A DNA stretch of 28,629 bases from a virus. Of this stretch, positions 4,181-28,395 are shown piece by piece. Position numbers and translations under genes: made by a program. Positions within the stretch are counted from its first letter, which is position 1. Every line of letters begins with the position of its first letter. The notes beneath the pieces are model-generated. The model had not been told where the DNA came from. It did not search any database and was given only the letters and a program-made list of their open reading frames with translations. The stretch is taken from IMG/VR virus record IMGVR_UViG_3300042302_000091, positions 1-28,629 of that record; one strand, written 5' to 3'.

Positions 4181-4299
4181 ACCGCATAGATAAAAATCTG
4201 CGGAAGCAGGATTGCACAAAATAAGAATGCCGTAACAATAGCCATCCACGCAAGCGGAACGGTTACGTTAATAATGAGGTCTTGGAGTTTCTGATTCAT
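4171..4299 (-). CDS. Small single-span membrane protein (42 aa)
   Basis: 42 codons from ATG 4299 to TAA 4171. Almost the whole product after the first ten residues is hydrophobic (VTVPLAWMAIVTAFLFCAIL), predicting one transmembrane helix of about 25-28 residues. It is the first gene after a well-formed Bacteroidota-type promoter and a repeated leader 12-mer, which supports expression. It overlaps the next gene by 10 bases. Such single-span early peptides sometimes modify the host envelope, but the role here is unknown. Confidence 0.65.
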   Translation of the reverse strand: MNQKLQDLIINVTVPLAWMAIVTAFLFCAILLPQIFIYAVCK

Positions 4300-4321: not shown

Positions 4322-4351
4322 CAAACATATAAAAAAAAACAATACACCAAA
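4322..4351 (-). promoter_or_regulatory. Bacteroidota-type promoter for leftward early genes
   Basis: On the minus strand, a TTTG (-33) at 4351-4348 is followed after 18 bases by TATGTTTG (-7, consensus TAnnTTTG) at 4329-4322. It lies in an A-rich gap between the 130-residue gene (ending 4369) and the 42-residue membrane gene (starting 4299), the position expected of a real promoter. Predicted start of transcription is about 4315-4317. Confidence 0.65.
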
Positions 4352-4368
4352 CATTACTAAAAAAAAAA

Positions 4369-4761
4369 TTAGGGCCGTAGCCCCAACTCTTTACCATCCT
4401 TTATATGTATGAATGCAACCTCCTTGTCTACCCAGTTACGTCTACCGAACTCGGTTGTTGCTGGAAGTTTCTTTATTCCCCATTCCATCGGGATTCCTGC
4501 TATCCGGAATACCCATATCCCTTTTGGGGTTGAGTTAATATAAATCGGGTTTGTTTGGTATTTTGCAGCCCTTGCCATTAAGGCATCGTACTTTAACTTT
4601 TCAATCAGCAATTCGTCGTAGTGCGTTGTTCGGCATTTCAACTCAATTTCAAAGGCGTACTGTGCCGAAAAACAATCCCAATGCGAATACGCCTCCTCGC
4701 TCATAGTCAAGTCGGGCAAGTAGTTCGTTTTAAGGAACTCAAATAGTTCCTTCTCCCTCAT
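4369..4761 (-). CDS. Hypothetical protein, possible PD-(D/E)XK-like nuclease (130 aa)
   Basis: 130 residues. A stretch around residues 28-45 (HWDCFSAQYAFEIELKCR) has an Asp about ten residues before E-x-K on a predicted beta strand, the layout of a PD-(D/E)XK core. The following helix carries many charged residues (YDELLIEKLKYDALMARA), then a strand (KGIWVFRI). The fold suggestion is inference only. It overlaps the upstream CxC protein by 23 bases and is followed by a promoter, so it is probably the last gene of its operon. Confidence 0.55.
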   Translation of the reverse strand: MREKELFEFLKTNYLPDLTMSEEAYSHWDCFSAQYAFEIELKCRTTHYDELLIEKLKYDALMARAAKYQTNPIYINSTPKGIWVFRIAGIPMEWGIKKLPATTEFGRRNWVDKEVAFIHIKDGKELGLRP

Positions 4762-13963: not shown

Positions 13964-14464
13964 TTATAGAACCCACGAGGCCGGGCGGGAATCTCGGTCT
14001 GGATAGATGTCTTCGTTGACGTTGGCATTGTACTCCGGGAATAAAGATTGGTTAAAAGACATATAGTCGATAAAACGCTCGGTGTAGTATTTCGCTATCG
14101 TGCGTTCCTTTTCTACTAAATAATCAATTTCGATTTTATCTACGTTTGTTGCGTTCTCGCTCGTATGCTTGTACACACCCCCGTTAGCAACCGTGTAAGC
14201 GGCAAACGGCAAGTATTCCACCATTGCAAAGTGAATAAGCATTGGCTGGATATAGTCAGTTACAAGGGATAGGTAATTACCCGCAAGCGTGTTAGCGATA
14301 ATATCCGAGGAAATCTTATCGTACAACTTTGTACCCGTGTAATTCTGGACGTGAATTTCTTGGGCAATTTTAATAAATTGGATAAATTTATCCGTATCGA
14401 CGTTGCCGGAAATAACCGTATTGCGTACAATATCCTCACGCTTGATAAAAAGAGCCGTGGCCAT
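13964..14464 (-). CDS. Head-tail connector (adaptor) protein
   Basis: 166 residues, largely helical, starting MATALFIKREDIVRNTVISG. The pattern of an N-terminal helical bundle binding the portal (DKFIQFIKIAQEIHVQNYTG, then a long YLSLVTDYIQPMLIHFAMVE helix) fits gp6/gp15-like adaptors. It starts one base inside the portal stop, the classic place for this gene. Assigned by position and helical layout. Confidence 0.65.
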   Translation of the reverse strand: MATALFIKREDIVRNTVISGNVDTDKFIQFIKIAQEIHVQNYTGTKLYDKISSDIIANTLAGNYLSLVTDYIQPMLIHFAMVEYLPFAAYTVANGGVYKHTSENATNVDKIEIDYLVEKERTIAKYYTERFIDYMSFNQSLFPEYNANVNEDIYPDRDSRPASWVL

Positions 14465-16227
14465 TATTTACGAGGTTTTAAGAATCCTTCATTGGGCATA
14501 TCCACGGGACGCTTTGCAACCTTTTCGTTGTTCGTCTCTGGCTTTACGCCTGCCTTACGTGCTTGGTTTACCGATACGTCGGCATTCGGGTTTTTAGCGT
14601 CTGGAGTTACGCCCTCCACCTTTGCCAGGTAGGTCTTACGCATCCAGAAGTGATGGCACCGTGCGCCTCCTTTGTATAACCAAATATCGTATGTTGACGC
14701 TCCGTTAGGCCCGAATCCAGCGTTAACCTCCTGCTTACGCATCCGTAGAATATCCTCCTTGCGGTAGACCTTCTTTGCGTTTACCATCAGCTTACAGAAT
14801 TGGCGGCTATTGGCCTTAGTGCTTCCGGGAGCGTAGGAATAACGAATCTTGTACTTGCGTCCGTCTTTGGTTTCGCCGTCTTGCTCACTCTTAGCGTTTG
14901 GGAACGCCTCCCCGGTCTTTGCAAATTGCAGAATAGAATCTAAATACTCCTCCTGCTCATAGTCAACGGCACGCTCGTCTACTAATTCCCAGTTATCCAA
15001 GTCCTCGTCTTCGCCGAAACCGTTTAGCGTTTCAAACATTTCGTTTAGAACTTCGTCGCTAACGTCGGCAGACATTGCGATACCGCTATCCTCTACCCCG
15101 GTAGATTCTTCCACCACCTCGGAAGGTGCAACAATTTCCTCCTTAAACTCCAACGGCTGTAACGTCTTAAAATAGATGTTTAAGGCCGCCCCGTTAAAAG
15201 ATAGCACTTGGTCTATTGCATCGAGAATAATCTCCTGTAATGGTCTAATAACCACGTTATCGAACAAGATAGAAGCCGTCTTTAACTCGTCGGCGTTATT
15301 ACCCAGTCCGCTGCTATCCTTAATGCCTAAAAGCATCGGGGACGTCACCCGGTGGCCAACCATAATCTTTTGCGTACACTCCGAGGAAAGGAACTGATAT
15401 TGCTCGCTTGCGTCGGATAATTGTACGGGTTCGATTGTTGCCGCAAGTTCCTTGTTGTCGTTGAAAGCCAAGATAAAACGGCCAGCATTCGAGCTACCAG
15501 AAAACTTATCCGCAATACGTGCCTCAATTAAGGTTTGCTCGTCCTCGGTAGGGGTTCCGTTATTAAAGTTAATCAGCATAGACGGAGCCAGCCCGTTCTT
15601 AATGTTGCTGATATGGTAATTGGCTACTTCTTCCTCCAGCTCAGCGTAAGGCAGGGAACCTTGGTAGTCTGTTGGGGCGTAATAATAGTATCCTGCTTTG
15701 TAGGGCTTGATATAAAGAATTTCAATACCCGACTTTGACATTCCGTAAGCATCAATGCGTACCGGAACCTCTTTACGTTGTGCTACCCTATCCCAGTTCT
15801 TTGCGTAGTAATAAGCAGGGATAAAACCTTCCTCGTTGCATTTTTCAGCACGCAGGGTCTCAACGGGGATATGCTCAATCTTTACGACCTTTGAATGGTC
15901 TTGGTTGTAGATAACTTGAAAGGCAGCATTGCCCATCATCTTGAAATCGCTAACAACTTTCTTAACGCAATTCTTAGTGAATAGCGACATCATCATTGCG
16001 TACTCGTCGGGCTTCTGGGATGCGTCTGTTGCAGCCAGTCCCTTGCCAAAAATCATATCAATAACACCGTTAATGATTGCGTTATTGGTAGGGCTTCCGT
16101 TGTAGCGGTCAATCAGGTACTGGAAATAATTGTTATCGTTTCCGTACTCAATCCATTGCTTTCCACTAACCTCCTTTACCTGCGGCTTAACGTAGGAGTT
16201 TAAGGCCATAAATCGTATGTTGCTCAT
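14464..16227 (-). CDS. Portal protein with C-terminal extension
   Basis: 587 residues. Residues 1-360 have portal features: KQWIEYGNDNNYFQYLIDRY, FKMMGNAAFQVIYN (stem/wing), VANYHISNIKNGLAPSM and GHRVTSPMLLGIKDSSGLGN, as in SPP1-type and Bacteroidota-phage portals. An acidic linker (365-430) leads to a second domain (450-540: RQFCKLMVNAKKVYRKEDI... GARCHHFWMRKTYL) with Cys/His. That module, to my knowledge, occurs with head-morphogenesis proteins. The portal forms the dodecameric packaging channel. It lies 10.7 kb downstream of the large terminase gene. Confidence 0.8.
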   Translation of the reverse strand: MSNIRFMALNSYVKPQVKEVSGKQWIEYGNDNNYFQYLIDRYNGSPTNNAIINGVIDMIFGKGLAATDASQKPDEYAMMMSLFTKNCVKKVVSDFKMMGNAAFQVIYNQDHSKVVKIEHIPVETLRAEKCNEEGFIPAYYYAKNWDRVAQRKEVPVRIDAYGMSKSGIEILYIKPYKAGYYYYAPTDYQGSLPYAELEEEVANYHISNIKNGLAPSMLINFNNGTPTEDEQTLIEARIADKFSGSSNAGRFILAFNDNKELAATIEPVQLSDASEQYQFLSSECTQKIMVGHRVTSPMLLGIKDSSGLGNNADELKTASILFDNVVIRPLQEIILDAIDQVLSFNGAALNIYFKTLQPLEFKEEIVAPSEVVEESTGVEDSGIAMSADVSDEVLNEMFETLNGFGEDEDLDNWELVDERAVDYEQEEYLDSILQFAKTGEAFPNAKSEQDGETKDGRKYKIRYSYAPGSTKANSRQFCKLMVNAKKVYRKEDILRMRKQEVNAGFGPNGASTYDIWLYKGGARCHHFWMRKTYLAKVEGVTPDAKNPNADVSVNQARKAGVKPETNNEKVAKRPVDMPNEGFLKPRK

Positions 16228-16559
16228 ATAATTACGAACGTATTATCTCCTGCGGTTTCTTGGTCGTACACCCCGGCATTCACGGTGAACTTCTCGAAAT
16301 TGGTTTGGTCGGTGCAGAATACCCGGCCTCTGTATATCAAATTTACGCCACTAAACACCTCTAATAGGTAAAAGTTTGCCGCCTTCAAAGTCCAAGCAGC
16401 ATTCAAGGTCATATACCCGTTTGCGCTTGTAGGTGCGATTGTTTGCGTCTGGGTGGTATTGGTAGATTCATTCGTTAACCGTGCCGATACAGAAGCAGGA
16501 AACGAGCGAGGGATAATTTGTAAATTCTGCGCTGTTGCGCTTGTAGTTAAAATGTTCAT
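16224..16559 (-). CDS. Small beta-rich virion protein (111 aa)
   Basis: 111 residues starting MNILTTSATAQNLQIIPRSF, Thr/Ser/Asn-rich with alternating strands (FYLLEVFSGVNLIYRGRVFC), suggesting a compact beta sandwich. It overlaps the portal start by ATGA and follows a terminator, so it may be the first gene of a new unit. This kind of protein is frequent in Bacteroidota siphoviruses; a head-fibre or neck role is possible but unproven. Confidence 0.6.
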   Translation of the reverse strand: MNILTTSATAQNLQIIPRSFPASVSARLTNESTNTTQTQTIAPTSANGYMTLNAAWTLKAANFYLLEVFSGVNLIYRGRVFCTDQTNFEKFTVNAGVYDQETAGDNTFVII

Positions 16560-16602
16560 CCTCTAATTAACTCAAGTCGGACGTTTTGTTTTTCTTACAA
16601 AC

Positions 16603-16624
16603 AAAAAAGCCACCCGAAGGTGGC
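16603..16624 (-). terminator. Rho-independent terminator after the tail-tube unit
   Basis: On the minus strand GCCACC-TTCG-GGTGGC, a 6-bp stem with a stable UUCG tetraloop at 16624-16609, runs straight into TTTTTT (16608-16603). It lies 25 bases after the stop of the 114-residue gene. Confidence 0.85.
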
Positions 16625-16648
16625 CTTTCTGAAATTTAATTATTTATT

Positions 16649-16993
16649 TTACTGGCCTCCGTACATTTTACGCATACCATTAATAACTTGACTCAAACGC
16701 TGAATCAATTTAATGGAATCGCCCATATCTGGGATTTGGTTATAGTCAGTAATGCCTAATTGCTTTGCGTCTGCAATAGTAAAAGACAAATCACTATCGA
16801 TTGCATCTACTCTTGCTTCTGCTGATTTTACCGCCTGCAAAAACTTCTGCTGTGCTGAATTGATGGTGCTCTCCATAGAGCGAAGTTCGTCATCAATCTT
16901 CTTCAATGAAACCAACGCTTGTGCCGGTTTGATTGCTGCTAATTCTACCTTACGAGAGTTCATCTCGTTCATAATCTTCAACGCATTTTCCAT
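16649..16993 (-). CDS. Coiled-coil protein downstream of tail tube (114 aa)
   Basis: 114 residues, almost entirely helical with heptads (LVSLKKIDDELRSMESTINS, AQQKFLQAVKSAEARVDAID), ending KLIQRLSQVINGMRKMYGGQ. It is 14 bases after the tail-tube stop and before a terminator, so the two are probably one unit. Could be a chaperone or minor tail protein; no homology recognised. Confidence 0.6.
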   Translation of the reverse strand: MENALKIMNEMNSRKVELAAIKPAQALVSLKKIDDELRSMESTINSAQQKFLQAVKSAEARVDAIDSDLSFTIADAKQLGITDYNQIPDMGDSIKLIQRLSQVINGMRKMYGGQ

Positions 16994-17007
16994 TTGTCAA
17001 AGATATA

Positions 17008-17541
17008 TTAAAAATCTGTACCTACAACGATAGTAGAAATTCCAGCAGCAGCCAAAGTGCCGTCCAAGAAGTTAGCAGGAACCGCCTCTTGTCCGTTAAG
17101 CGTCAAAGTGTAACCACTCATATCGCCCATAGCGGCACCCGTTACAATCGTTCCTCCGGTTACTTCGCAACCGTGTTCCAGGCCAGCTACAAAAAAGTTA
17201 CTGTTGCGGTCTTCAACGATTACAATCGGACGTCCGTAGGCCATCAATTTGATTTCCTTGTTAGATTGCTTGCTCAATTTGTGCAAGGTCAAGTTCAAGG
17301 TTTGGTCGAAGAACGTGGTTCCGTTATCACGGCTTGAGGTTACGGCCTGCTCAAAAGAGGAGGTTCCTTTCAAGTCGTATTTGTAAGCGGTCAATCCGCT
17401 TCCCAGAACGTCAATAGCATCCGTGTTGGTTGCATCGTAAGTAACCGTCAAGTTTGCGTAGTTCAAAAAGTAAACCGCATTCAAACCACCTACAACGTCC
17501 TTGCAGGGTTCAATGCGGCCAAGGGATAATGCACAAGCCAT
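17008..17541 (-). CDS. Major tail tube protein
   Basis: 177 residues. The N-terminus MACALSLGRIEPCKDVVGGL and the segments LTAYKYDLKGTSSFEQAV, SSRDNGTTFFDQTLNLTL, LMAYGRPIVIVEDRNSNFFV and GAAMGDMSGYTLTLNGQE follow a pattern I associate with tail tube proteins of Bacteroidota siphoviruses. It is a single beta-sandwich-sized protein, expected to stack as hexamers in the non-contractile tail. It has its own flanking terminators, fitting high expression. Confidence 0.75.
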   Translation of the reverse strand: MACALSLGRIEPCKDVVGGLNAVYFLNYANLTVTYDATNTDAIDVLGSGLTAYKYDLKGTSSFEQAVTSSRDNGTTFFDQTLNLTLHKLSKQSNKEIKLMAYGRPIVIVEDRNSNFFVAGLEHGCEVTGGTIVTGAAMGDMSGYTLTLNGQEAVPANFLDGTLAAAGISTIVVGTDF

Positions 17542-17562
17542 TTTATTTGTATTTAGTAAGTT

Positions 17563-17602
17563 AAAAAAGAAAGGGGTGGGGCGTCATTACACCACCACCC
17601 CT
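17563..17602 (-). terminator. Terminator after the major capsid gene
   Basis: On the minus strand AGGGGTGG (17602-17595) pairs with CCACCCCT (17579-17572) across a 15-base loop, followed by TTCTTTTTT (17571-17563). It lies 20 bases after the capsid stop. Confidence 0.7.
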
Positions 17603-17622
17603 ATCAGGATTTTTAAGAAAGA

Positions 17623-18552
17623 TTAAGCTCCGTAGTAAACGATGTCGCTACCGATTCCGTACTGGATACCAGCGGACATACGCATAATCAAGCGGAAGTT
17701 TTGGCTTCCGTCGATATCCGCCATATCAATCAGGCGAACCTCGTTCTTGTCGCTCAACAAGCCAGTTCCAAAGAACAAGTTTGACTTCTGTGCAGCAACC
17801 ATTTTGTTAGAAGACAAACCTTCGGCAAGAGCAACTTTGATACCATCAAAGTACAAGTCTTGTGAACCGTACCACATAGTACCTTTGTTGTCAACACCGT
17901 TAGCACCTACTCCAGCGGCAGCGAAGCCACCCAAGGCACGTACATAGGCCTTAGCGACGTTCTGAGGAACGTAGATAGTCAAGTCCTGCTTACCGTACAA
18001 AGTAGAAGGGATAGCGTCTACAACCTTACCCAATTCAGCGATTACGTTAGCAGCGGTAACAGTCGTAGCAGTTACGTCGATAACATCACCATCAGCGGCG
18101 AACAAAGTTTGGAAACCGTCAAACTGGCCAGCAGAAGCGTTAACGCCTGCCCAGATGTTTTGCTCGATACGAGCAGCAACTTTCTCAGCTGCGTAAGCAA
18201 CGATAAAGTCAGTAAAAGAGGCGGGTACATTCTTGAATGCAGAGTAACCCATCTCTACGGCCTGCCAGGTTTGCTCAAAGTCTTTTTTGCACATTTGCAA
18301 GTTAACCTGAAATTCCTCGGTGGTCAAAACACGCTCGGTCAAGGTAACGGTAGACGTTGGGTCAAAGTCGCAAGTTGCGTTCTTCAAAATATCGTCAGTA
18401 CCAACCTTTTGGATAACTGATTTGTAGTACACGTTGGGCAGAACCTCGATAAGGCCTTTGTCCAAGGTAGGTGCGCTCAAAAGAGCTGCGGCAACGTATT
18501 TACCGGCAAACTCGCCAGCATACGTTGTGGTAATTGAAGTAGTAGTAGCCAT
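17623..18552 (-). CDS. Major capsid protein (HK97-fold type)
   Basis: 309 residues starting MATTTSITTTYAGEFAGKYV. It has the length and layout of small HK97-fold capsid proteins in Bacteroidota phages: a spine-helix region (FKNVPASFTDFIVAYAAEKV, IEQNIWAG), a P-domain and A-domain (DLTIYVPQNVAKAYVRALGG), and a C-terminal strand (SQNFRLIMRMSAGIQYGIGS). It follows the scaffold-like gene by 15 bases and precedes a terminator. Assigned by composition, size and context. Confidence 0.8.
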   Translation of the reverse strand: MATTTSITTTYAGEFAGKYVAAALLSAPTLDKGLIEVLPNVYYKSVIQKVGTDDILKNATCDFDPTSTVTLTERVLTTEEFQVNLQMCKKDFEQTWQAVEMGYSAFKNVPASFTDFIVAYAAEKVAARIEQNIWAGVNASAGQFDGFQTLFAADGDVIDVTATTVTAANVIAELGKVVDAIPSTLYGKQDLTIYVPQNVAKAYVRALGGFAAAGVGANGVDNKGTMWYGSQDLYFDGIKVALAEGLSSNKMVAAQKSNLFFGTGLLSDKNEVRLIDMADIDGSQNFRLIMRMSAGIQYGIGSDIVYYGA

Positions 18553-18567
18553 TTTTTAGAATTGATT

Positions 18568-19125
18568 TTATTTGTTAAGACGTGCGAGAACTCGGTCGAT
18601 AGCAGACTCCGGGGCGTTCTGGGCGAGGTTAACTCGTGCCGGAGCGGGGGCAGCTTCTGGGTTGTGGCGGATGGGCATAGCGGCAGGCATATCGCTTGAC
18701 ATTTCCTGCTTCTTTTTGTACGCTCCCATTTCCTCCTTCATTGCGGACATTTCTGCACGCATCTCCTCAAGGATAGGCATTACTACCTCCTTGATTTTGT
18801 CCTCCATAGTAGGTTCGGCAGCTGCTTCAACTTCGACCTCTACTTCCGGGGCTTCTTCTTCTGCTTCGGCTGCTGCTTCTTTGATTTCACCGATAACACC
18901 TTCTTCAACTACAACCAAGATGCGGCCATCTTCCATTTGATATTCACCGACTGGGACTGCGATACGGTCTTCCTCTGATACGATGAAAATGGGTTGGCCT
19001 GCCTCAAATGATTCAGCTTCCAAGACGGTGCCGTTATCGAGCTTGGCTTGCGCCAACTCAACACCGGAGGTCTCAACTGCGGACAGCTCGGCAAAGAATT
19101 TCTGGAAAATTTCTGTTGCTTTCAT
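18568..19125 (-). CDS. Scaffold-like head assembly protein
   Basis: 185 residues. The N-terminal part is beta-rich (NGTVLEAESFEAGQPIFIVS, GRILVVVEEGVIGEI). A very acidic Ala/Glu linker follows (EAEEEAPEVEVEVEAA, about 85-105), then a coiled coil (MEDKIKEVVMPILEEMRAEM...MGAYKKKQ) and a C-terminal basic tail (IDRVLARLNK) that could contact the capsid protein. The order protease, scaffold, capsid is classical. It would guide capsid assembly and be removed by the protease. Confidence 0.65.
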   Translation of the reverse strand: MKATEIFQKFFAELSAVETSGVELAQAKLDNGTVLEAESFEAGQPIFIVSEEDRIAVPVGEYQMEDGRILVVVEEGVIGEIKEAAAEAEEEAPEVEVEVEAAAEPTMEDKIKEVVMPILEEMRAEMSAMKEEMGAYKKKQEMSSDMPAAMPIRHNPEAAPAPARVNLAQNAPESAIDRVLARLNK

Positions 19126-19161
19126 AATTCAAATTACTCTTTAATTGATTTTGTTACATTT

Positions 19162-19302
19162 TTATACTGGCACCTTCACGGTAACGCCTACGCCCTGCGC
19201 TTGCAAACTTCCGTCGCAGCACTTGGCAGAATAGGTGTTATCCTTACAAAGGCATCCACGCTTGCCCCCTTTTGGGGAAGAACGGCTTGGGGTCTTTTTC
19301 AT
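19162..19302 (-). CDS. Small Cys-rich protein between protease and scaffold (46 aa)
   Basis: 46 codons from ATG 19302 (ATGA overlap with the protease stop) to TAA 19162. The N-terminus is basic (MKKTPSRSSPKGGKRG), then C17-x-C19 in GCLCKDNTYSAKCCDGSLQA with C28-C29, and a short hydrophobic end. I recall near-identical CLCKDNTYS-x2-CCDG peptides in other Bacteroidota phages, so it is probably a conserved small protein. Four Cys suggest metal binding or disulfides. Function unknown. Confidence 0.75.
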   Translation of the reverse strand: MKKTPSRSSPKGGKRGCLCKDNTYSAKCCDGSLQAQGVGVTVKVPV

Positions 19303-20234
19303 AATTTACCTAATTCTTTTAATTTAGATTCTGCCCAACGCTTTGCGGCAAGTCCGCCCCATAGCAGGAAGGATATAGTACCGCACGCCTGCATATCTGT
19401 TTCGTCGTAGTATGCTTCGGCTCTTGATAGGTACGAATACATACGGGTAATGGTCTCTACGCTGATAGGACGTCCGTCGGCGAGCTGTTGCGCTCGAATC
19501 TTGCCTACTGCCGTGGCGCATTTGTTGCCGCCCTTCTCGTTTAGCTCGATTCCTTTCTTAGCATTGTTGCGTACCGCTTCCGGATAGTCGGTGTACGATT
19601 CCATTTCGATTCGCTTCTTGCTCTTTAAGCGGCCATCCTTTTTAATCTTGGCAATAATGTTAGAAAGCATAAACTCTGCTTCCTCCTCCTCGATTCGTTC
19701 CAGGTGGGATTCCATTTGCATCTTGTCAACAAAATAGCCCTCAATAGAAAAGCCCTTAACCCGTCCGGTCTTAACGTAGTTATTCCAAATATCGTCGTTG
19801 TTGACTTTCATTGAAACCATCCACGTACCCTCTGGTAATTCCATTCCGTAGATAGCCGTCTTGTCCTTTTGGGGGTCTTCTACAATCCAAGATTCTACCA
19901 CCGACAAACCGCTTAATTCTGCGGCGTGTTCTAACGTGGTATTGCCTTGGTACCCACGCATCAAAAATAACTCCGACGCACGACGTACCGTATCTTTAGA
20001 AAAGTACACGTAAAACTCCTCACCGCCTTGGTTGCGGTAGATTGTTTTGTTTGGAATAAGGGCTGCGCCCATAAGGATACGTTTCTCCTCGTCCTGCGCT
20101 TTGAACTCTACCTCATACTCTTTTGCAAGGGTAATAAAGTTCTCCTCAATCGCTGGGTGTTCAACGATAGAAATTGCATTAATGCCGTTTAGTCCTTCGG
20201 TTTCTTCGAGGACAAGTTCAATTACTTTTTTCAT
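19299..20234 (-). CDS. XkdF-like prohead serine protease with extra C-terminal domain
   Basis: 311 residues. Residues 1-175 fit XkdF-type prohead proteases: a GAALIPNKTIYR strand, H103 in TTLEHAAE, VVESWIVEDPQKDK, and S163 in KGFSIEGYF, the probable catalytic His and Ser. Residues 215-311 form a second domain (YPEAVRNNAKKGIELNEKGG, KCATAVGKIRAQQLADG, YSYLSRAEAYY, LLWGGLAAKRWAESK) often attached to head proteins of Bacteroidota phages. It would process scaffold and capsid during prohead maturation. TAATG junction with the tape-measure-like gene. Confidence 0.75.
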   Translation of the reverse strand: MKKVIELVLEETEGLNGINAISIVEHPAIEENFITLAKEYEVEFKAQDEEKRILMGAALIPNKTIYRNQGGEEFYVYFSKDTVRRASELFLMRGYQGNTTLEHAAELSGLSVVESWIVEDPQKDKTAIYGMELPEGTWMVSMKVNNDDIWNNYVKTGRVKGFSIEGYFVDKMQMESHLERIEEEEAEFMLSNIIAKIKKDGRLKSKKRIEMESYTDYPEAVRNNAKKGIELNEKGGNKCATAVGKIRAQQLADGRPISVETITRMYSYLSRAEAYYDETDMQACGTISFLLWGGLAAKRWAESKLKELGKL

Positions 20235-21805
20235 TATCCGAATGTTGCTGTTCTTGCTCTGCGTCTTGCCAACTGTTGTGCGTTTGTAACTTGGCCTGCT
20301 ACCACGTATGCTTGAATGGGTTGTTGGTTTCTTGCGTTTACTGAATCCGCTAATTGATTGATTCCAGAACGCCCAACGATATTAAATTGTGGGGACATCT
20401 GCGATTGTGCAGGTGCGCCCGTGCCACCGCCGCCACTTGAACTAATGTTTGTATCTGGGGACTCAAATTGTGTTCTTGAAATTGACGCAACTTGCGCCAA
20501 GCTAAACGCCGCAGCAAGTCCTGCTTGTACATACGGGTAGCCGGGGAAGGCAGCAGTATATGGAGACTTTTGTGCGGTCGTATATGCATTCTGTACCGCT
20601 TCAATACCAGAAATAACCGCAGTTGCAAGGGATAATTTCTTTTGGAACTCAAACTGGCGTTTCTTAGACGCTTCATCGTCTCCTGCAAACGCTGCTGATA
20701 ATGCACTTATTGCGGCAAGTCCGTCTTTTGCCATTTGAAATTTTGCAGCAGACACCTCCTGGTCAAGTGTTTTACTATCTCGTGCGTACTGAACCTCTGC
20801 TGCATTCTTATCGTCAAGCAGTTGCAAATAAGCATCGTAAGCCTCTTGTTGTGCTACTGTTCCCTCTGCTGCGTTTTGCAGACGTTGCTTTGCGATTGCC
20901 AGCTCTGTATCAAGAATCTTAACTTGTTGATTGTATTCAATCTCAAGTGCTTTGCGGCGGTTCTCCTCGATGCTTGATATGGTTACATACTCACCTTGAA
21001 TAACCTCTCCGTTCTTTTGAATTAATTCGTTGTAGGTAATCATTTCCCGGTTAAGAGCCATTTGATTCATTAAGAACTCGGAACGCTGGCCCGCAACTCT
21101 TTCTTCAATATCGGTTAACTCGGTTCTTGCTTGAATTAAGGCAATCTCATTTTCAATGCTTGGTATCTTCTCGTATTGCGCTGCTGCACCGGCAACAATC
21201 TGGTCAACAAGTCCCTTTTCTTTCTCCAGCTGCTCGGTTAGAATCTCATTCAAAAGTGTATTTGCCTCAACCCTGGATTCGATACTTCTATATTCATCGT
21301 CCCGCATTTGTCGGGCTTCTTCGGCAAGTAACTGATATGATAATTGAACCTCGGTACGCCGGGCGGCGGCTAATGCACCCTGCTTCTCTAATTCTACAAT
21401 CTCCTTTGAATCGGAAATAACACTACCAAGATTTAAGGCGGTACCCTTTGTAAGGGAATCAAATATACGGGATACGGTCAACTGAACTGCTCCAAGTGCT
21501 GTATTGAAAACGTCTACAACACCTTGGTTGGCCATAAACGATTCCTTGGCGGCGTCGATGGCAATTGATACAAGCGCAAAGCTCTTAGCACTATTGGCCA
21601 GCTCCTTGAAAGAATTACTTGCTTTCTCCGTTTCTTTCTGAACTCCCTCTACACCCTTTTCTGTTTTCTCGAATGCTTTTTTACTTTCGTTACCAAACTT
21701 TTTTACGCTATTGTTAAGCTCAACAACATTGTTATTAAGGTTCTCAATAGTGCTTTCAAGGTTCGTTCCGTCCCCTTGTATCCTTATAGTTTCGACAATC
21801 GCCAT
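20234..21805 (-). CDS. Probable tail tape measure protein (short)
   Basis: 523 residues. The N-terminus is coiled-coil (LESTIENLNNNVVELNNSVK...), followed by a hydrophobic segment (FALVSIAIDAAKESF), long Glu/Ala/Gln helices (residues 140-385) and a second hydrophobic stretch (YVQAGLAAAFSLAQVASI). The end is flexible and basic (QQLARRRARTATFG). This fits tape measure proteins, which set tail length. At about 0.15 nm per residue a tail near 80 nm would be expected. No lytic domain is visible. A different internal tail protein is possible. Confidence 0.65.
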   Translation of the reverse strand: MAIVETIRIQGDGTNLESTIENLNNNVVELNNSVKKFGNESKKAFEKTEKGVEGVQKETEKASNSFKELANSAKSFALVSIAIDAAKESFMANQGVVDVFNTALGAVQLTVSRIFDSLTKGTALNLGSVISDSKEIVELEKQGALAAARRTEVQLSYQLLAEEARQMRDDEYRSIESRVEANTLLNEILTEQLEKEKGLVDQIVAGAAAQYEKIPSIENEIALIQARTELTDIEERVAGQRSEFLMNQMALNREMITYNELIQKNGEVIQGEYVTISSIEENRRKALEIEYNQQVKILDTELAIAKQRLQNAAEGTVAQQEAYDAYLQLLDDKNAAEVQYARDSKTLDQEVSAAKFQMAKDGLAAISALSAAFAGDDEASKKRQFEFQKKLSLATAVISGIEAVQNAYTTAQKSPYTAAFPGYPYVQAGLAAAFSLAQVASISRTQFESPDTNISSSGGGGTGAPAQSQMSPQFNIVGRSGINQLADSVNARNQQPIQAYVVAGQVTNAQQLARRRARTATFG

Positions 21806-21939
21806 TCCTTTATTCCTTCTTGGATTTTATCTTCCGTAAACTTATACGTTCCTTTTGCAATTTCGATTTCGTGACTAACGCCAACGTATGGTTGGCTATC
21901 TAACACCTCAATCAAATAACTCAAATAAGATTCCCTCAT
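21784..21939 (-). CDS. Small protein upstream of the tape measure (51 aa)
   Basis: 51 codons from ATG 21939 (ATGA with the stop of the 674-residue gene) to TAA 21784, overlapping the tape-measure-like start by 22 bases. The product starts MRESYLSYLIEVLDSQPYVG and ends IQEGIKEWRLSKL. The exact junctions at both ends support coding. It sits where some phages encode tail chaperones, but this phage has its frameshifting chaperone elsewhere. Confidence 0.65.
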   Translation of the reverse strand: MRESYLSYLIEVLDSQPYVGVSHEIEIAKGTYKFTEDKIQEGIKEWRLSKL

Positions 21940-23960
21940 ACATTGTTTAATAACTCGAATTCTGCCTTGCCCGTTGTAAGGTTAATCTGCACGTTGTTGA
22001 CTACCCACTTCTGCCCGTTCCAAAGTAACTTGTTTTTTAGGTCGAAGTTTAGAATCTTGCCCAAAGGCAATATAGCAGGAATACGCACCAATCTACGGGA
22101 AGGGTCGTACAAGTCCGTAATATAGTCTTGCCAATATACATTGTATAGTGAATTATTTACTGATTGTAACATATACGGGTCAAGGTCTGCCCCGTAGTTC
22201 AAGGAGTAGGTAGAAGCAGCATTAAACTCCTGATTTGATGCGTTGGCGTAAACCACTTGCGTAACTGACACCGACTTATGCCCGCTAATAATTGTTTGAG
22301 TAGGGTCGATAAACGACAACACCGCAGGGTTAATCGTTATTGGCGTGCTAACATAAAATATAAACGGCTGGCCTAAATAGGTTTCCAGCTCACGAGTTAC
22401 CGCATATCCTGCCAGCAATTTTGTTAACGCTCCACCGTCTTGGTCGGTTAACCGGGTAAATAGCATCTGGTCGAATTGCGGTTGCACAACCAACTCCTCG
22501 TCCGTATCAAACACAAACTCCGAGCGTAAATCACCGTACCCAATATCGTTAGTTAATCGGTACTGCTCCCCGGTAATTGCGCCCGTCTCGTTGTATTGGA
22601 ATTGAATCTGCTTGTAAAGTTGCGGACGTTCTACTTGACTTTCTGTTATATCGAAGTATTGAGACAAGTCAACATCCGAGCCAAAGGCATACCAATCGTC
22701 AAGAGGCAAAAGGTCAAACTCTGTGCTGCTTGTCGGAATGATTACCAAGTTGAACATTTTGCAAAGCGAAGCCAAGAAGTCGGTTATCTTCTGCTCTGGC
22801 ATCAAAGAAGGTATGTCGATAGTGCCGGATATGTTTTGCGTCGAGGTGTTATATGCACTGGCCCTAACAACCGAGGTTGCTGCATCTTGTATATCAATAG
22901 CCCCAGCAAATGTAACCGATTCATTTGTAGAAGGTTGTATAGCATAGTAAGCCTCATTGTTCCTATACATTACAATATCCTCAAAAGTTGTGGTGGTTGT
23001 TCCGTTTAATGTTTTTTGCGCTATTAAAATGTCATTAACGAATATACCTACATTGTAATCACCCGTATAAGCTCCTACATTTATGGATATGTAGAAATCA
23101 TAAAGTGTAGCTACAAATGCCCCAGGTACTAAATTGGAGAACGTGCTGGCTGTGTAATCCCACCAATCAGGCGTAATTGGCACAAGAGGGGTCGGGGCAA
23201 GGATTTTTGTCCAAGGCATTGCGTTTGGAATATCCTTGTACATATAGCCAGCGTGGCGGTGACACCATATATGCAACTTGTTGTAGTCGCGAATGCCGCT
23301 TACATTAATAGTGATTCCATATTTATCTTCTATTGCTGCGACTACTTTATTAATTTCAATAGCGGGTTTTAAGTCGTAGTATTGAACTCCGTGGGTTTGG
23401 TTTTGATTATGGTAGTATATATTGTTCGGGTCGTTTTGCGTATTATTGCTTTCATAGAACCAAACGTCCTTTGCTGTAATTAGCGGGAATACAATAGAGT
23501 TTAACCCAAGCGATACCAACCCAGTGTAAACATTGTTGGGGGTGTAATCTAAATTGTAAGCCGACAAGCCATCAAGGTCATATAAATAGTCCTCACCGAA
23601 TAAGTCCGTAAGGTTTACCAGAAGTCCGTAGAACGTAATATCGTAAGCGTAGGGAGCGTTTTGGCGCATCTGTACACCTTCCAGTTCAATAGACCCGTAA
23701 CGGAATACCAGGCCGTTAATTTCGATATACCCTTCGGCACGCAATCGGTAGTCAGCGCCACCAACAATATCCGTGCGGTAGTAATGCTCAAAGATTGCGT
23801 TGTTACGTGGCGAAGCAGGAACGCTGAAACCCTGGGTGAAGTCGGTAAAGACCTTGCTTATATCTTGAATGTTTTGAACGGATAGGTTAATTACAATATC
23901 CTCATCCCCGAACATATCAAGCTCTTGGTCTCCTACAAATATCGTTACCTTATTTTTCAT
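21936..23960 (-). CDS. Large tail/baseplate structural protein (674 aa)
   Basis: 674 residues. The N-terminus (MKNKVTIFVGDQELDMFGDE, INLSVQNIQDISKVFTDFTQ, GFSVPASPRNNAIFEHYYR) matches a family I know from Bacteroidota siphoviruses, generally called a structural or minor tail protein. Beta-rich throughout, with aromatic and Asn-rich segments in the middle (residues 170-370). Large size and position between the 416-residue tail protein and the tape measure suggest a distal tail or baseplate component. ATGA junctions on both sides. Confidence 0.7.
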   Translation of the reverse strand: MKNKVTIFVGDQELDMFGDEDIVINLSVQNIQDISKVFTDFTQGFSVPASPRNNAIFEHYYRTDIVGGADYRLRAEGYIEINGLVFRYGSIELEGVQMRQNAPYAYDITFYGLLVNLTDLFGEDYLYDLDGLSAYNLDYTPNNVYTGLVSLGLNSIVFPLITAKDVWFYESNNTQNDPNNIYYHNQNQTHGVQYYDLKPAIEINKVVAAIEDKYGITINVSGIRDYNKLHIWCHRHAGYMYKDIPNAMPWTKILAPTPLVPITPDWWDYTASTFSNLVPGAFVATLYDFYISINVGAYTGDYNVGIFVNDILIAQKTLNGTTTTTFEDIVMYRNNEAYYAIQPSTNESVTFAGAIDIQDAATSVVRASAYNTSTQNISGTIDIPSLMPEQKITDFLASLCKMFNLVIIPTSSTEFDLLPLDDWYAFGSDVDLSQYFDITESQVERPQLYKQIQFQYNETGAITGEQYRLTNDIGYGDLRSEFVFDTDEELVVQPQFDQMLFTRLTDQDGGALTKLLAGYAVTRELETYLGQPFIFYVSTPITINPAVLSFIDPTQTIISGHKSVSVTQVVYANASNQEFNAASTYSLNYGADLDPYMLQSVNNSLYNVYWQDYITDLYDPSRRLVRIPAILPLGKILNFDLKNKLLWNGQKWVVNNVQINLTTGKAEFELLNNV

Positions 23961-25207
23961 CGAATGTTGTTCCTAATGTTCCAGGCAATCTCAAACGTCA
24001 AGTTGTAACTAATCATTTTGGCGTTAATCTGCTTAAAGTATTCAACACCTCCGGCGGTTGGGTTGGCCGTAAACTCCTGCCCATCGTAAAGAAGCGATAC
24101 CTTCTCGCTCATAAGCAACTCACGGATAACATCGTCGTAATTCTCGTCTACCCACCCGGTATTAACCGTAATGGTCTCTCGGCTGTTGACATCAAAGTTA
24201 CGGTACTGCAACTGCTGCGTTACGTCGTAGGAAGTAGGCAACTGCGGCATATAACTTTCCCGTGTGAACCCACCGCTTCGGGTGGAAACCTTAAAGCAAG
24301 TTAGGTAGTCGCTAACTCCGTACCGGTTAATGAAGGTAACACGTACCGGGGTGTATTTAGGTTCGCATACCAATTCGTAATTGTAATCGGTAGCGTTTTC
24401 CTCGTATCCCAGTTCCGCAAGTGCTGCACGTAGGCAAGCAAACCCCTCGCACGTACCGCCGTCGGCTTCTACCCGTGCTTTGTAGTTGACTGCTGCGCTA
24501 TCACTAATCAATGAAATAGTGTAATCCTCAATAGGTTCAACACCCAAGAAAGAATCCACGCTATTAGGGCCAGCGGGAATATAGATAATCTTTTGCGTTG
24601 ACTGGGTGCTTGTGTTTGAGAATCCCAGCTCGTCGGATAGCACGTAAAAATAGTCGGTTCCGTTTACGTTGTACAGCACGCCGTTAAGGTCGGTGTTTGC
24701 ATCGTACAAAGCGGGCAAGGACTGCTCGTATCCTTCCATTACTTGAATGGTGCGGTTGGTGATTAAGCCAGCACCCGCAACGATACCCCCTGATTGCGTA
24801 GTAAACGGCAACCAGCCGTCAGTACATAGGAACGATTGATTGTTTTGAATTAAGCCGCTACCTGGGGTTCCCGCATTCACGTAGTTAGACGATAAAGAAA
24901 ACTTACACCATACGTCTTCAGTTGTTGCATTCTCCCAATCGCTAATAGGGTCGTTCTTTAATACGGTGGTAATCTTCTCACGTATTAACTCGCTGATTTC
25001 AAATACAATAGGTTCGTCGTTAATAGAGCTTTTGGTTAACGTGTAATCCGCCGTTGGGCTGCTTGCGCTGCTACCTTGGAAAATACGCAGGGTAAGCGTA
25101 GCGTCAACAAGGCCGTCGTTAACGGCTGTGCCTTTGGTTAAGGTGATAAATATCGGAGACCTTGTAAATTGCAACGAGGTCGGAAAGCTGGCTATTGGTA
25201 GTCCCAT
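23957..25207 (-). CDS. Tail structural protein (416 aa)
   Basis: 416 residues, beta-rich, starting MGLPIASFPTSLQFTRSPIF and ending with a WNIRNNIR tail. Segments such as LTLRIFQGSSASSPTADYTL, IVFEISELIREKI and RVTFINRYGVSDYLTCFKVS suggest several beta-sandwich domains. It is coupled to the HK97 gp10-like gene (TAATG) and the 674-residue gene (ATGA), so it belongs to the tail module; a distal tail or tail-tip component is likely but not proven. Confidence 0.65.
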   Translation of the reverse strand: MGLPIASFPTSLQFTRSPIFITLTKGTAVNDGLVDATLTLRIFQGSSASSPTADYTLTKSSINDEPIVFEISELIREKITTVLKNDPISDWENATTEDVWCKFSLSSNYVNAGTPGSGLIQNNQSFLCTDGWLPFTTQSGGIVAGAGLITNRTIQVMEGYEQSLPALYDANTDLNGVLYNVNGTDYFYVLSDELGFSNTSTQSTQKIIYIPAGPNSVDSFLGVEPIEDYTISLISDSAAVNYKARVEADGGTCEGFACLRAALAELGYEENATDYNYELVCEPKYTPVRVTFINRYGVSDYLTCFKVSTRSGGFTRESYMPQLPTSYDVTQQLQYRNFDVNSRETITVNTGWVDENYDDVIRELLMSEKVSLLYDGQEFTANPTAGGVEYFKQINAKMISYNLTFEIAWNIRNNIR

Positions 25208-25713
25208 TATTTACGTGTGAATGCTTGGAAGTCATCGGGCGTAAGCTCAAACGCCTGGACTATTTCTTGTGGAAGTTTCTTAAAGTTGACTTTGAATGGT
25301 GCGCTAAAAAAGTAACTCGGTTTAATACCATTGTTGTACACCGACTTTGCTATTGCCCATTGCAAGCTCTTGCGTGGGATAAATCTTCCGTTCTTATCCC
25401 GGACACCTTCTAACCCTTTACGCACTACCCAGTTTGCAAACGCCTTGGGTGGTGGCATCTTATTGGTGTATTTGTATGGCGTGTTGAACTTTCTTTTCAC
25501 ACCGCTTACACCTTTGTCTTGAAACTCCCCGTACGGTTCCATTGAGAACGTAAGGGAGAACGAGTTAGGGCCAACCGCCAAGTCGTAGTCAAGAGAATTG
25601 TACAGCTCCTTTGTGCTGTTCTTTTTCTTCTTGGTGAGGTTCTGCCTTGCTTGTTGAATTACACGCTTTGCAAACTTCGTTAATGCGGCTTGTACGAGTT
25701 GTTGGCGGGACAT
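25207..25713 (-). CDS. HK97 gp10-like tail completion protein
   Basis: 168 residues. Basic N-terminal helix (FAKRVIQQARQNLTKKKKNS), then STKELYNSLDYDLAVGPNSF, EPYGEFQDKGVSGVKRKFNT and APFKVNFKKLPQEIV. The Y-G-x-F-x-D-K-G motif is the common signature of gp10-like neck proteins that join head and tail. Neighbours (tail terminator upstream, tail protein downstream) agree. Junctions on both sides overlap by one base. Confidence 0.65.
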   Translation of the reverse strand: MSRQQLVQAALTKFAKRVIQQARQNLTKKKKNSTKELYNSLDYDLAVGPNSFSLTFSMEPYGEFQDKGVSGVKRKFNTPYKYTNKMPPPKAFANWVVRKGLEGVRDKNGRFIPRKSLQWAIAKSVYNNGIKPSYFFSAPFKVNFKKLPQEIVQAFELTPDDFQAFTRK

Positions 25714-26180
25714 CAGCAGATAGATATTTCCGTATTAGGCACAATCAAGTCAAAGGTCAGGTTCCACCCGGTAAGCAAACTTTCAAAGCGCTCCGTAAAC
25801 GGCTCACAAATAATATCACCTTCGATTTCGTACTTCTCCGTGTACAACGTACCACGGCGTAACTGTGATTGCAATCCGTTTAGAATTGCCAAGGTGGTAT
25901 TCAAAATATCTTGTTGGTTATCTACGCCAAAGAACGGCTCGTTCTGGTCTCTAATATCCTGCTTGGTCTCATCCACAATATCCATACATAACACCGATAC
26001 GTTGAATCGTATTACGTGGTCTGCGAATGTTGCTTGGTTAACCATAATATGCGCCAACGGGAATATGGTCTGCTTGTTAAGGTCAACGTCGAATATATCC
26101 CCAAAGGTTACAACCTTCACCAAAGGGTGCGAGGATAGGTATTCGTTTATCTTTTCGGTGGCAAGGTAAAAGCTTCTCAT
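25713..26180 (-). CDS. Tail terminator-like protein
   Basis: 155 residues, alpha/beta, starting MRSFYLATEKINEYLSSHPL. The FPLAHIMVNQATF and VIRFNVSVLCMDIVDETKQD strands and a C-terminal GWNLTFDLIVPNTEISIC fit small tail terminator/completion proteins of the gpU/gp17 type. Its ATG is embedded in an ATGA junction with the frameshifted reading frame of the upstream chaperone gene, which argues that the frameshifted product is really made. Confidence 0.6.
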   Translation of the reverse strand: MRSFYLATEKINEYLSSHPLVKVVTFGDIFDVDLNKQTIFPLAHIMVNQATFADHVIRFNVSVLCMDIVDETKQDIRDQNEPFFGVDNQQDILNTTLAILNGLQSQLRRGTLYTEKYEIEGDIICEPFTERFESLLTGWNLTFDLIVPNTEISIC

Positions 26181-26901
26181 TTTTTTATCATTGAAATTTC
26201 AATATCGTTTTTCTCTTTCTCGAATGTTAAGTATGTCAACGCTTGGTTTATTGGAAGTTGAGTAACGTCTCCAAATTTGAGGACATCTCCTTGAGCAAGC
26301 GCATAGATTGATTGATACCATCCCCATCGCTGTCCGAATTGGGCTTCTCTGGTGTATGGGTTTTCAGTTCTTTCTCCAAAGAGCGCAGGGTATGCGCTGC
26401 CAATACGTTCCCTAAACGATAAAAAAAAACCAGCGCCCCAAGCACTACCGAAGCGGGCATCTGCTTCATTATTTCGTCTCGCTCGTCTGTTGCTTCGTAT
26501 TTCTCAATATCGTAACGCTCACCTTTCTCCTTTACAACCGGACGATATAGTACAGCCATTGCACGGTGCATAGTTGCCCAATCGGATAAGTAAGAATCAA
26601 GGTCGACAAACTCACCGAGGGAAATTTCGTTGAGTGCTGGAATGAATCCGTATTTAACTTCGTTGAGTTCAAAGAATTTAGTTAATCCGGGCTTCTCGGA
26701 TAGGGTCTTAGTCAGGCGTTCCAATACGCTTACAGCATCTACCAAACGGACATTCGGCAGCTCTGAAAATGGAACCCCGCAGAAGATTTCAAGCATCTTC
26801 ATTTGTTTGAACTCACCCTCGCCCTCAATACGAGCGAATCGCTGGTATTGTTCAAGCGTGATTTCATCAAGCGAAGTTGGTACTACTAATTTAAGTTCCA
26901 T
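26177..26901 (-). CDS. Tail assembly chaperone, long form by -1 frameshift (241 aa)
   Basis: Translation from ATG 26901 for 160 codons, then a -1 slip in the T9 run (26429-26421), gives 81 further codons ending at TGA 26177. The extra part (LSFRERIGSAYPALFGERTE, then FGQRWGWYQSIYALAQGD, LPINQALTYLTFEKEK and IEISMIKK) is clearly protein-like. Its stop overlaps the tail-terminator start as ATGA. This is the layout of the lambda G/GT chaperones that deliver tape measure and tube protein during tail assembly. The slip itself is inferred. Confidence 0.75.
26248..26901 (-). CDS. Tail assembly chaperone, short form (217 aa)
   Basis: The unshifted product starts MELKLVVPTSLDEITLEQYQ and is helical throughout, ending in LLKEMSSNLETLLNFQ. 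The open frame begins at a TTG at 26916 overlapping the terminase stop, but ATG 26901 gives the usual 'M-x-L-x-(I/V)-P-T-S-L-x-E-I' start of this Bacteroidota-phage family. The tail after the slip site (YRLGNVLAAHTLRSLEKELK...) is also protein-like, as expected if both products are used. It sits directly after the large terminase, well away from the tape measure. Confidence 0.75.
   Translation of the reverse strand: MELKLVVPTSLDEITLEQYQRFARIEGEGEFKQMKMLEIFCGVPFSELPNVRLVDAVSVLERLTKTLSEKPGLTKFFELNEVKYGFIPALNEISLGEFVDLDSYLSDWATMHRAMAVLYRPVVKEKGERYDIEKYEATDERDEIMKQMPASVVLGALVFFYRLGNVLAAHTLRSLEKELKTHTPEKPNSDSDGDGINQSMRLLKEMSSNLETLLNFQ
26421..26429 (-). promoter_or_regulatory. Slippery T9 frameshift site
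   Basis: Nine consecutive Ts on the minus strand in GTT-TTT-TTT-TAT. The zero frame runs on to 26248. The -1 frame is open from here to 26177, where its stop forms an ATGA with the next gene. T-runs allow both tRNAs to re-pair after a -1 slip. Confidence 0.7.
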
Positions 26902-26912
26902 AGATAAATAAC

Positions 26913-28070
26913 TCAACGGATAGAATACCTACCGTAGTTTGGTTTAGAAAGTTTATTAAACACGGCATAACGTGCAGCATCGAGGGCGTGATTCATTACG
27001 TCTATTGGCTTATTAAGCAGGTTGCCGTTCTTATCCTCCGTCCATTTGTAGTTCTGCAATTCTTTAATTAGATTGTTGCTCCGTGCTGTTGCAAATATCT
27101 TATGCCGTTTGAGAATATCAATACCTGCGTTAATCGAATCTTGGCCTTTGGCTGTTGGCTTAATGTTCCAGCCGAATCGGTGCAGCTCTTCAATTGATTT
27201 CGGTTCTGCGCTATCCGCAAAGATTTCGTCCCTCCGGTCAAGCCCTAACGATTGCAAATGGTGGTGCAGGTCTCGGTTGGTCATCCCGGTACGGTATAGC
27301 AATTCGTCCAAGTAAAGGTTATCCCCGTGCTGGTAGATTGCCACGATTGCAGACGGGTCGTTTGTAAAACCAAAGTCAAGGCCATAGGAAAGTAGTTTTG
27401 CTTCTTGTGGGATTTCAGCCGTTCCAAATTGGAATACAGTCGCTCGTGACATACCACGCTCCCCAAGGCCGTAGATACGCCAATAGTCTTCGTCGGTGTA
27501 TTGTAGCCGTTCAATTTCTTGCTTAATCTTCTCGTCAAGGAACGGGTTATCCCGGTAGGTGGTTTGGTAAAAGTCGCAATCCTCACGGGGTATTACCCTA
27601 TCATAAATCCAATGGAAAGATTCGGAAGGGTTGTAGTCAAGAATAATACGCCCATCGGTACGAAAGATAAGCTGCTGCCAATCCTCGTAAAACAATTCGT
27701 TTGCCTCGTTAATGTAAAGTAGGTTCCGTTTGCGGCCCCGTATCTTTTGAGGTTGGTCTAACGATATAAACTCAACAAGGTTACCGTTAAGGTGGTACTC
27801 GTGGCTGGACTTGTTATGGAAGTCCTCCCGGTATAAATCGTGTTCACGCAAAATATCAAAGAAGTCCCGCATAACCGAAGCCCGCAGGGACGGGAACGAC
27901 TTACGGCAAATGGTTATGGTCTTGGCTGTGTTGCGTTCGGTGTAATAAAAAATAAGCCAGAGCAGGATATTGTAAGTTTTCCCGCTCCGTGTACCGCCTT
28001 GCTCAACGATAATACGCTTATCGCTTTTGATTAGGTGGTTAAATACCTTATTGGTCTGTATCGTTGCCAA
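26913..28070 (-). CDS. terL: Terminase large subunit (TerL)
   Basis: 385 residues. ATPase domain: Walker A GGTRSGKT (25-32), Walker B LLYINEANE (117-125) with the catalytic Glu. Nuclease (RNase H-like) domain: D232 in YGLDFGFTNDPS, D286 in IFADSAEP, and D364 in NHALDAARYAV. This is a PBSX/Terminase_3-like packaging motor, which cuts concatemers and pumps DNA through the portal. The gene overlaps the small-subunit 3' end by 23 bases. Confidence 0.92.
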   Translation of the reverse strand: MATIQTNKVFNHLIKSDKRIIVEQGGTRSGKTYNILLWLIFYYTERNTAKTITICRKSFPSLRASVMRDFFDILREHDLYREDFHNKSSHEYHLNGNLVEFISLDQPQKIRGRKRNLLYINEANELFYEDWQQLIFRTDGRIILDYNPSESFHWIYDRVIPREDCDFYQTTYRDNPFLDEKIKQEIERLQYTDEDYWRIYGLGERGMSRATVFQFGTAEIPQEAKLLSYGLDFGFTNDPSAIVAIYQHGDNLYLDELLYRTGMTNRDLHHHLQSLGLDRRDEIFADSAEPKSIEELHRFGWNIKPTAKGQDSINAGIDILKRHKIFATARSNNLIKELQNYKWTEDKNGNLLNKPIDVMNHALDAARYAVFNKLSKPNYGRYSIR

Positions 28071-28395
28071 GAACTTCTATTTGGAACATCTTGCCCGTAG
28101 ATACGTCTAACTCCTGCCGTTCTACATAACCACGCTTCTTACCTTTGGTTTTAAGAAAGAAAATAGTAGCGGTTGAATTACCGTCCTTTATTTGTTTATG
28201 CAACTGGCTTTCAGCAAAGTCAAGGGCAACGTCTGATAGTGAATCGACTGCTGCTTTGTATTCGGGGTCGCTATCCATCCAAAGGTAATGCGTAGTTCTC
28301 CCAATGCCTACCGTCTTGCAAGCCGAGGTTACAACTCCGAGGGATTTTTCCAATGCATCGAGCATTGCCTTTTTATGCTGTTCAGTTTTGTCCAT
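28048..28395 (-). CDS. terS: Terminase small subunit
   Basis: 115 residues. An N-terminal helix-turn-helix of the phBC6A51/homeodomain-like type (MLDALEKSLGVVTSACKTVG, then GRTTHYLWMDSDPEYKAAVD), a central oligomerisation helix (VALDFAESQLHKQIKDG) and the SATIFFLKTKGKKRGYVER segment common in small terminases. It recognises the packaging site and loads TerL, encoded directly downstream. The start ATG at 28395 has an A-rich leader. No host-type promoter is seen on this strand upstream. Confidence 0.85.
   Translation of the reverse strand: MDKTEQHKKAMLDALEKSLGVVTSACKTVGIGRTTHYLWMDSDPEYKAAVDSLSDVALDFAESQLHKQIKDGNSTATIFFLKTKGKKRGYVERQELDVSTGKMFQIEVLGNDTDQ

What the first reader, a model, noticed from the sequence alone, without database searches (positions are those of the whole stretch)
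26177..26901. Programmed -1 frameshift in the tail chaperone gene, supported by an ATGA junction in the shifted frame
A T9 run (26429-26421) is followed by an 81-codon -1 frame with clear protein character (WGWYQSIYALAQGD...) that ends exactly in an ATGA with the tail-terminator start. The zero frame ends 68 bases before that gene. A standard gene caller reports only the 217-residue form. It is also unusual that the chaperone follows the large terminase and is separated from the tape measure by five genes.
Basis: partly seen in the sequence, partly recalled or inferred. Interest (0 to 1): 0.72.

Follow-up and report, generated by a model that had tools for sequence, protein, structure and literature searches.

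The report
T9 frameshift gene with overlapping tails
A family of viruses of aquatic Bacteroidetes-type bacteria uses a never-broken run of nine T's to read one tail gene in two frames, so that one stretch of DNA encodes two different protein ends that are both kept by selection; the trick resembles the known tail-chaperone frameshift of phage lambda, but the doubly coded stretch is about five times longer than usual.

Summary
On the minus strand the 217-codon zero frame (26901-26248) contains T9 (26429-26421, heptamer T_TTT_TTT). An 81-codon -1 frame follows, ends in ATGA with the next gene, and has no start codon before its conserved domain. In 440 related loci holding both halves the run is T9 in 439 and T10 in one, never shorter; this spans 67 clusters at 70% identity and includes cultured Nonlabens phages. 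Profile comparison shows that Duneviridae and other phages encode the same fused protein as ONE unshifted ORF, without the T9 run. The -1 extension is therefore the protein's normal C-terminus. The zero-frame tail (median 186 nt past the slip) is also selected: synonymous change in the overlap falls to 0.40 of the upstream rate and recovers after the zero-frame stop, and in 28 of 31 lineages that frame stays open longer than chance gives. No RNA structure or Shine-Dalgarno-like signal is conserved, so transcriptional slippage on T9 is a serious rival to ribosomal slippage. A lambda gpG/gpGT-like role is likely but unproven: gene order and slip position differ from lambda, and no convincing homology to known chaperones was found. 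New variant of a known kind.

The parts
26248..26901 (-). Zero-frame ORF, 217 aa (gpG-like product); PHROG 32199, unknown function
26421..26429 (-). T9 run, phase G|TT TTT TTT T|AT
   Evidence: T9 in 439 and T10 in 1 of 440 loci
26422..26428 (-). Slippery heptamer T_TTT_TTT
   Evidence: sequence; slip-site Phe codons TTT 134:0 against 403:167 upstream
26177..26422 (-). -1 frame extension, 81 codons and stop (WGWY domain)
   Evidence: conserved in all relatives holding both halves; no start codon before WGW; matches the C-terminus of single-ORF homologues
26248..26420 (-). Dual-coding overlap: zero-frame tail and -1 extension
   Evidence: synonymous rate 0.40 of upstream in the overlap beyond codon 18; zero frame open longer than chance
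26177..26180 (-). ATGA junction of the -1 frame stop with the start of the next gene
   Evidence: ATGA in 43 of 67 clusters
25713..26180 (-). Tail-terminator-like gene, 155 aa (name by inference; PHROG 30964, unknown function)
   Evidence: homologue 3' of the frameshift gene in 67 of 67 clusters
26913..28025 (-). Large terminase gene just upstream
   Evidence: Pfam PF04466 and PF17288
20234..21805 (-). Tape-measure candidate, 523 aa
   Evidence: PHROG 21537 virion structural protein; tape-measure role inferred
17008..17541 (-). Major tail protein candidate, 177 aa, by inference only
   Evidence: PHROG 19091, unknown function

Best explanation
A tail-module gene makes two proteins by programmed -1 recoding at T_TTT_TTT inside a T9 run. 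Unshifted reading gives a 217-aa protein with its own conserved 57-residue tail. A fraction of reading slips by -1 and gives a 241-aa protein with the 81-residue WGWY domain, which is the normal C-terminus of the homologous single-ORF protein of other phages. Shown here: the conserved slip run, selection on both tails, the lack of an internal start in the window, and the single-ORF homologues. Inferred: the slip is made mainly by the ribosome (about 0.6, against 0.35 for RNA polymerase), and the two proteins work like lambda gpG/gpGT, chaperoning the tape measure and recruiting tail subunits in a set ratio (about 0.65-0.7).
For: T9/T10 in 440 of 440 loci; 258 unique genes in 67 clusters, dual-coding signature; zero-frame openness; no alternative start; fused product aligns with unshifted homologues, probability 98.2, score 98.5, through the junction, zero-frame tail does not; homologues lack the T9 run; tail-terminator-like gene adjacent in 67 of 67; weak fold match to an annotated tail assembly chaperone, E 0.043, prob 0.98.
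Against: No product has been seen. No downstream structure and no conserved upstream Shine-Dalgarno-like signal. The gene is not between major tail protein and tape measure. No sequence similarity to lambda G/T, no Pfam or PDB match. The apparently unshifted homologues show that a short form is not needed in all phages.
Confidence: 0.6

Rival explanations
1. Transcriptional slippage: RNA polymerase adds one U on the T9 run, so ordinary translation of a U10 message gives the same 241-aa protein; U8 messages stop within about three codons.
For: The run is never shorter than nine, a length at which selection against slippage appears in many bacterial genomes (PMC1088944), although a ribosomal heptamer needs seven; no ribosomal stimulator found.
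Against: The two extra T's lie in codons for hydrophobic residues, which the protein can explain. Phase fits a standard ribosomal heptamer, and known chaperone frameshifts are ribosomal (PMC5009743).
Confidence: 0.35
2. The recoding is real but the protein is another tail or neck assembly factor, not a chaperone of the gpG/gpGT type.
For: The gene always lies next to a terminator-like gene and not between tail tube and tape measure; single-ORF versions exist; no convincing homology to known chaperones.
Against: A -1 frameshift giving two C-termini in a tail cluster is the hallmark of tail assembly chaperones; weak fold match; in Ingeline the homologue lies three genes before the tape measure.
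Confidence: 0.3
3. Sequencing error or recent indel that splits a single ORF.
For: Homopolymers are error-prone; phage 6H shows such a break in its homologue.
Against: The same run and phase in 440 loci from many contigs and in cultured phages; purifying selection on both frames.
Confidence: 0.01
4. The -1 ORF is a separate gene translated from its own internal start.
For: Nonlabens phage annotators called it so; 26 of 67 clusters have some ATG/GTG/TTG at or before the slip in the -1 frame.
Against: No ATG before WGW in 61 of 67 clusters and none of ATG/GTG/TTG in 38 of 67; none in the window; homologues are fused.
Confidence: 0.02

Closest known systems
Lambda gpG/gpGT-type tail assembly chaperone frameshift (reviewed in PMC5009743)
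   Same: A -1 shift on an X_XXY_YYZ heptamer in a tail-cluster gene; two products with a shared N-part; the extension meets the next gene.
   Different: Slip lies 171 nt before the zero-frame stop here (median 186 nt) against averages of 26 and 36 nt (PMC10885494); both frames are selected; gene follows the terminase, not the major tail protein; no sequence similarity found.
PHROG 25418 single-ORF tail-region protein of Duneviridae (6H, FPSV, laban, Ingeline), Leef_1 and Microcystis phage Mea-Yong924-1
   Same: Homologous over 217 aligned columns including the extension; also next to a small gene of terminator-like size.
   Different: One continuous reading frame, no T9 run, no long alternative frame.
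Transcriptional slippage on 9A/9T runs (IS elements, Thermus dnaX; PMC1088944)
   Same: Run of nine, alternative C-termini from one gene.
   Different: No RNA evidence here; the phase also fits a ribosomal heptamer.

Membership tests
Lambda-type tail assembly chaperone (G/GT) | Two products with a common N-part through a -1 frameshift | tested here: met
   Comparative evidence only; products not seen
Lambda-type tail assembly chaperone (G/GT) | X_XXY_YYZ slippery heptamer in phase | tested here: met
   T_TTT_TTT in all loci with both halves
Lambda-type tail assembly chaperone (G/GT) | Slip close to the end of the zero frame (tens of nt) | tested here: not met
   Median 186 nt against 26/36 nt
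Lambda-type tail assembly chaperone (G/GT) | Gene between major tail protein and tape measure | tested here: not met
   After TerL, four ORFs before the tape-measure candidate; terminator-like gene 3' in 67 of 67
Lambda-type tail assembly chaperone (G/GT) | Detectable relation to known chaperones | tested here: inconclusive
   No Pfam or PDB match, no lambda G/T similarity; one weak fold match, E 0.043
Lambda-type tail assembly chaperone (G/GT) | Binding to tape measure and tail tube protein; fixed product ratio | not testable with these tools
   Needs experiments
Transcriptional slippage gene | Homopolymer of about nine A or T | tested here: met
   T9 or T10 in 440 of 440
Transcriptional slippage gene | mRNAs of different run length | not testable with these tools
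   Needs RNA from infected cells
PHROG 25418 single-ORF protein | Profile similarity along the fused protein | tested here: met
   hhalign probability 98.2, score 98.5 over 217 columns
PHROG 25418 single-ORF protein | One uninterrupted reading frame | tested here: not met
   The window and its 440 relatives need a -1 shift

The most novel reading that the evidence does not exclude
An ancestral single-ORF tail protein was split by a T9 slip site that then became fixed, and its zero-frame read-through was turned into a second, de novo (overprinted) functional tail, with the product ratio set by RNA polymerase slippage on a run of nine T's rather than by a stimulated ribosomal site.
Probability: 0.25. 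Interest if true: 0.75.

Novelty: new variant of a known kind. Interest (0 to 1): 0.52.

Why it matters
It adds a frameshift-dependent tail gene shared by a large, mostly uncultured group of aquatic phages, whose two halves sit in databases as separate unknown families (PHROG 32199 and 38404). It offers a natural comparison: the same protein with and without recoding. It also gives a long dual-coding overlap under selection on both frames in a dsDNA phage, and a nine-T site suited to testing ribosomal against transcriptional slippage in bacteria whose translation rarely uses Shine-Dalgarno signals (the last point from general knowledge).

Tried and rejected
Sequencing error and independent initiation were rejected. 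Downstream stem-loop: none over 31 lineages; upstream Shine-Dalgarno-like signal: not conserved. T9 against T7 as the constrained length: undecidable, since the flanking T's sit in hydrophobic codons. No solved structure related by fold. The PDB sequence hit of the extension profile, CroV Crov588, has no stretch that passes on its own and was set aside. Lambda G/T: no profile similarity. The A7 before the -1 stop, which could slip into the terminator-like gene, is found in 0 of 67 clusters, so chance. Bacterial genomes: 1 of 395 phylum members has the T9 form, and that one, G001, was the centre of the search; 2 of 395 have the phrog_25418 form. Scans of viral contigs for more single-ORF relatives found only laban6-1 itself. 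No prior description of this site turned up in the papers searched; the library lacks most subscription journals.

Full report
OBSERVATION. Every sequence coordinate in the finding checks out: minus-strand zero frame 26901-26248 (217 aa), T9 at 26429-26421 in phase G|TT TTT TTT T|AT, an 81-codon -1 frame ending at 26177 in an ATGA with the next gene. A run of nine is not rare by itself here (4 matches, 2.97 expected); the others are intergenic. The number of ORFs before the tape-measure candidate is four, not five.

CONSERVATION. Scans of viral contigs, a genome scan and cultured phages gave 440 loci with both halves. The run is T9 in 439 and T10 in one (L248, where the preceding codon is TTT), and the relation is -1 in all but L057, which has an upstream indel. 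Many loci overlap; they reduce to 258 unique complete genes, 67 clusters at 70% and 20 at 50% protein identity, minimum 21%. Upstream Phe codons are 403 TTT to 167 TTC, yet all 134 slip-site Phe codons are TTT; the preceding codon is always NTT. The naive probability is 7e-21; lineages are not fully independent, so this is indicative only.

NO INTERNAL START. In the window the -1 frame has no ATG, GTG or TTG before the conserved WGW; 61 of 67 clusters have no ATG there and 38 of 67 none of the three. In some lineages the -1 frame opens only four codons before the slip, which pins the shift to the T-run.

SINGLE-ORF HOMOLOGUES. A fold search hit a Flavobacterium phage 6H protein, weakly (E 0.0012). 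Its relatives in Duneviridae (FPSV-F7, laban6-1, Ingeline), Leef_1 and a Microcystis phage encode one 259-301 aa ORF. Profile-profile comparison aligns the FUSED (-1) product with them along residues 6-235 of 241 (probability 98.2, score 98.5). The zero-frame product scores less (75) and the zero-frame tail alone does not match, while the extension alone finds their C-terminus at E 0.0013. At the homologous junction three of the five have TTT TTT followed by G, FPSV-F7 has TAT TTT G, and Leef_1 reads ACT TAT; none has a long alternative frame (0-38 codons). The extension is therefore the protein's regular C-terminal domain.

DUAL CODING. The zero frame runs on 16-88 codons past the slip (median 186 nt), against averages of 26 and 36 nt reported for known chaperone frameshifts (PMC10885494). 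In 108 disjoint sequence pairs, four-fold synonymous differences are 0.354 upstream of the slip, 0.052 in the first 18 overlap codons, 0.142 in the rest of the overlap (0.40 of upstream, bootstrap 0.35-0.46), and 0.299 after the zero-frame stop (0.85, 0.67-1.02) (smaller first set). Re-drawing synonymous codons for the -1 protein leaves the zero frame open as long as observed with p<0.05 in 28 of 31 lineages. The exceptions are L067 and the Inhavirus-like pair L157/L242, which have short zero tails. Both tails are thus under selection. A cis-acting RNA signal could add to the very low rate next to the slip, but no folding signal was found there.

MECHANISM. Phase and sequence fit tandem tRNA slippage on T_TTT_TTT. 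The run is never shorter than nine, which is also a threshold for transcriptional slippage in many bacteria (PMC1088944), and no stimulator was found. The protein made is the same either way. I favour ribosomal slippage about 0.6 to 0.35, because the flanking T's can be explained by hydrophobic codons.

FUNCTION. A tail-terminator-like gene lies 3' in 67 of 67 clusters and TerL lies upstream in 42 of 67. The architecture works like lambda gpG/gpGT (PMC5009743), but gene order and slip position differ, and similarity to known chaperones is at best weak. I therefore do not file it as a proven member; I put a chaperone role at about 0.65-0.7.

VERDICT. Real, conserved recoding; a new family and a new variant of a known kind, remarkable mainly for the long selected dual-coding overlap, the invariant run of at least nine T's, and the homologues that need no frameshift.

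Noticed in passing
L306:10352-10400 (Flavobacterium phage 6H, KC959568): 6H's 191-aa ORF is cut short relative to the 293-aa ORF of close relatives such as FPSV-F7; probably a small indel or sequencing error in the record.
   Followed up: partly
window 26180-26186: A7 directly before the -1 frame's TGA; a further -1 slip there would run into the terminator-like gene. Not conserved (0 of 67 clusters), so probably chance.
   Followed up: yes
window 4331-4368: A9 and A10 tracts close together in the gap between genes 3878-4249 and 4369-4761.
   Followed up: no
window 14464-28395: Genes are ordered terminase, tail genes, tape-measure candidate, then protease, capsid candidate and portal: tail genes come before head genes.
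   Followed up: partly
L157:6001-6695 (Nonlabens phage P12024L, CDS 40 and 41): The two halves of the frameshifted gene are annotated as two separate hypothetical proteins and sit in two separate PHROG families.
   Followed up: yes
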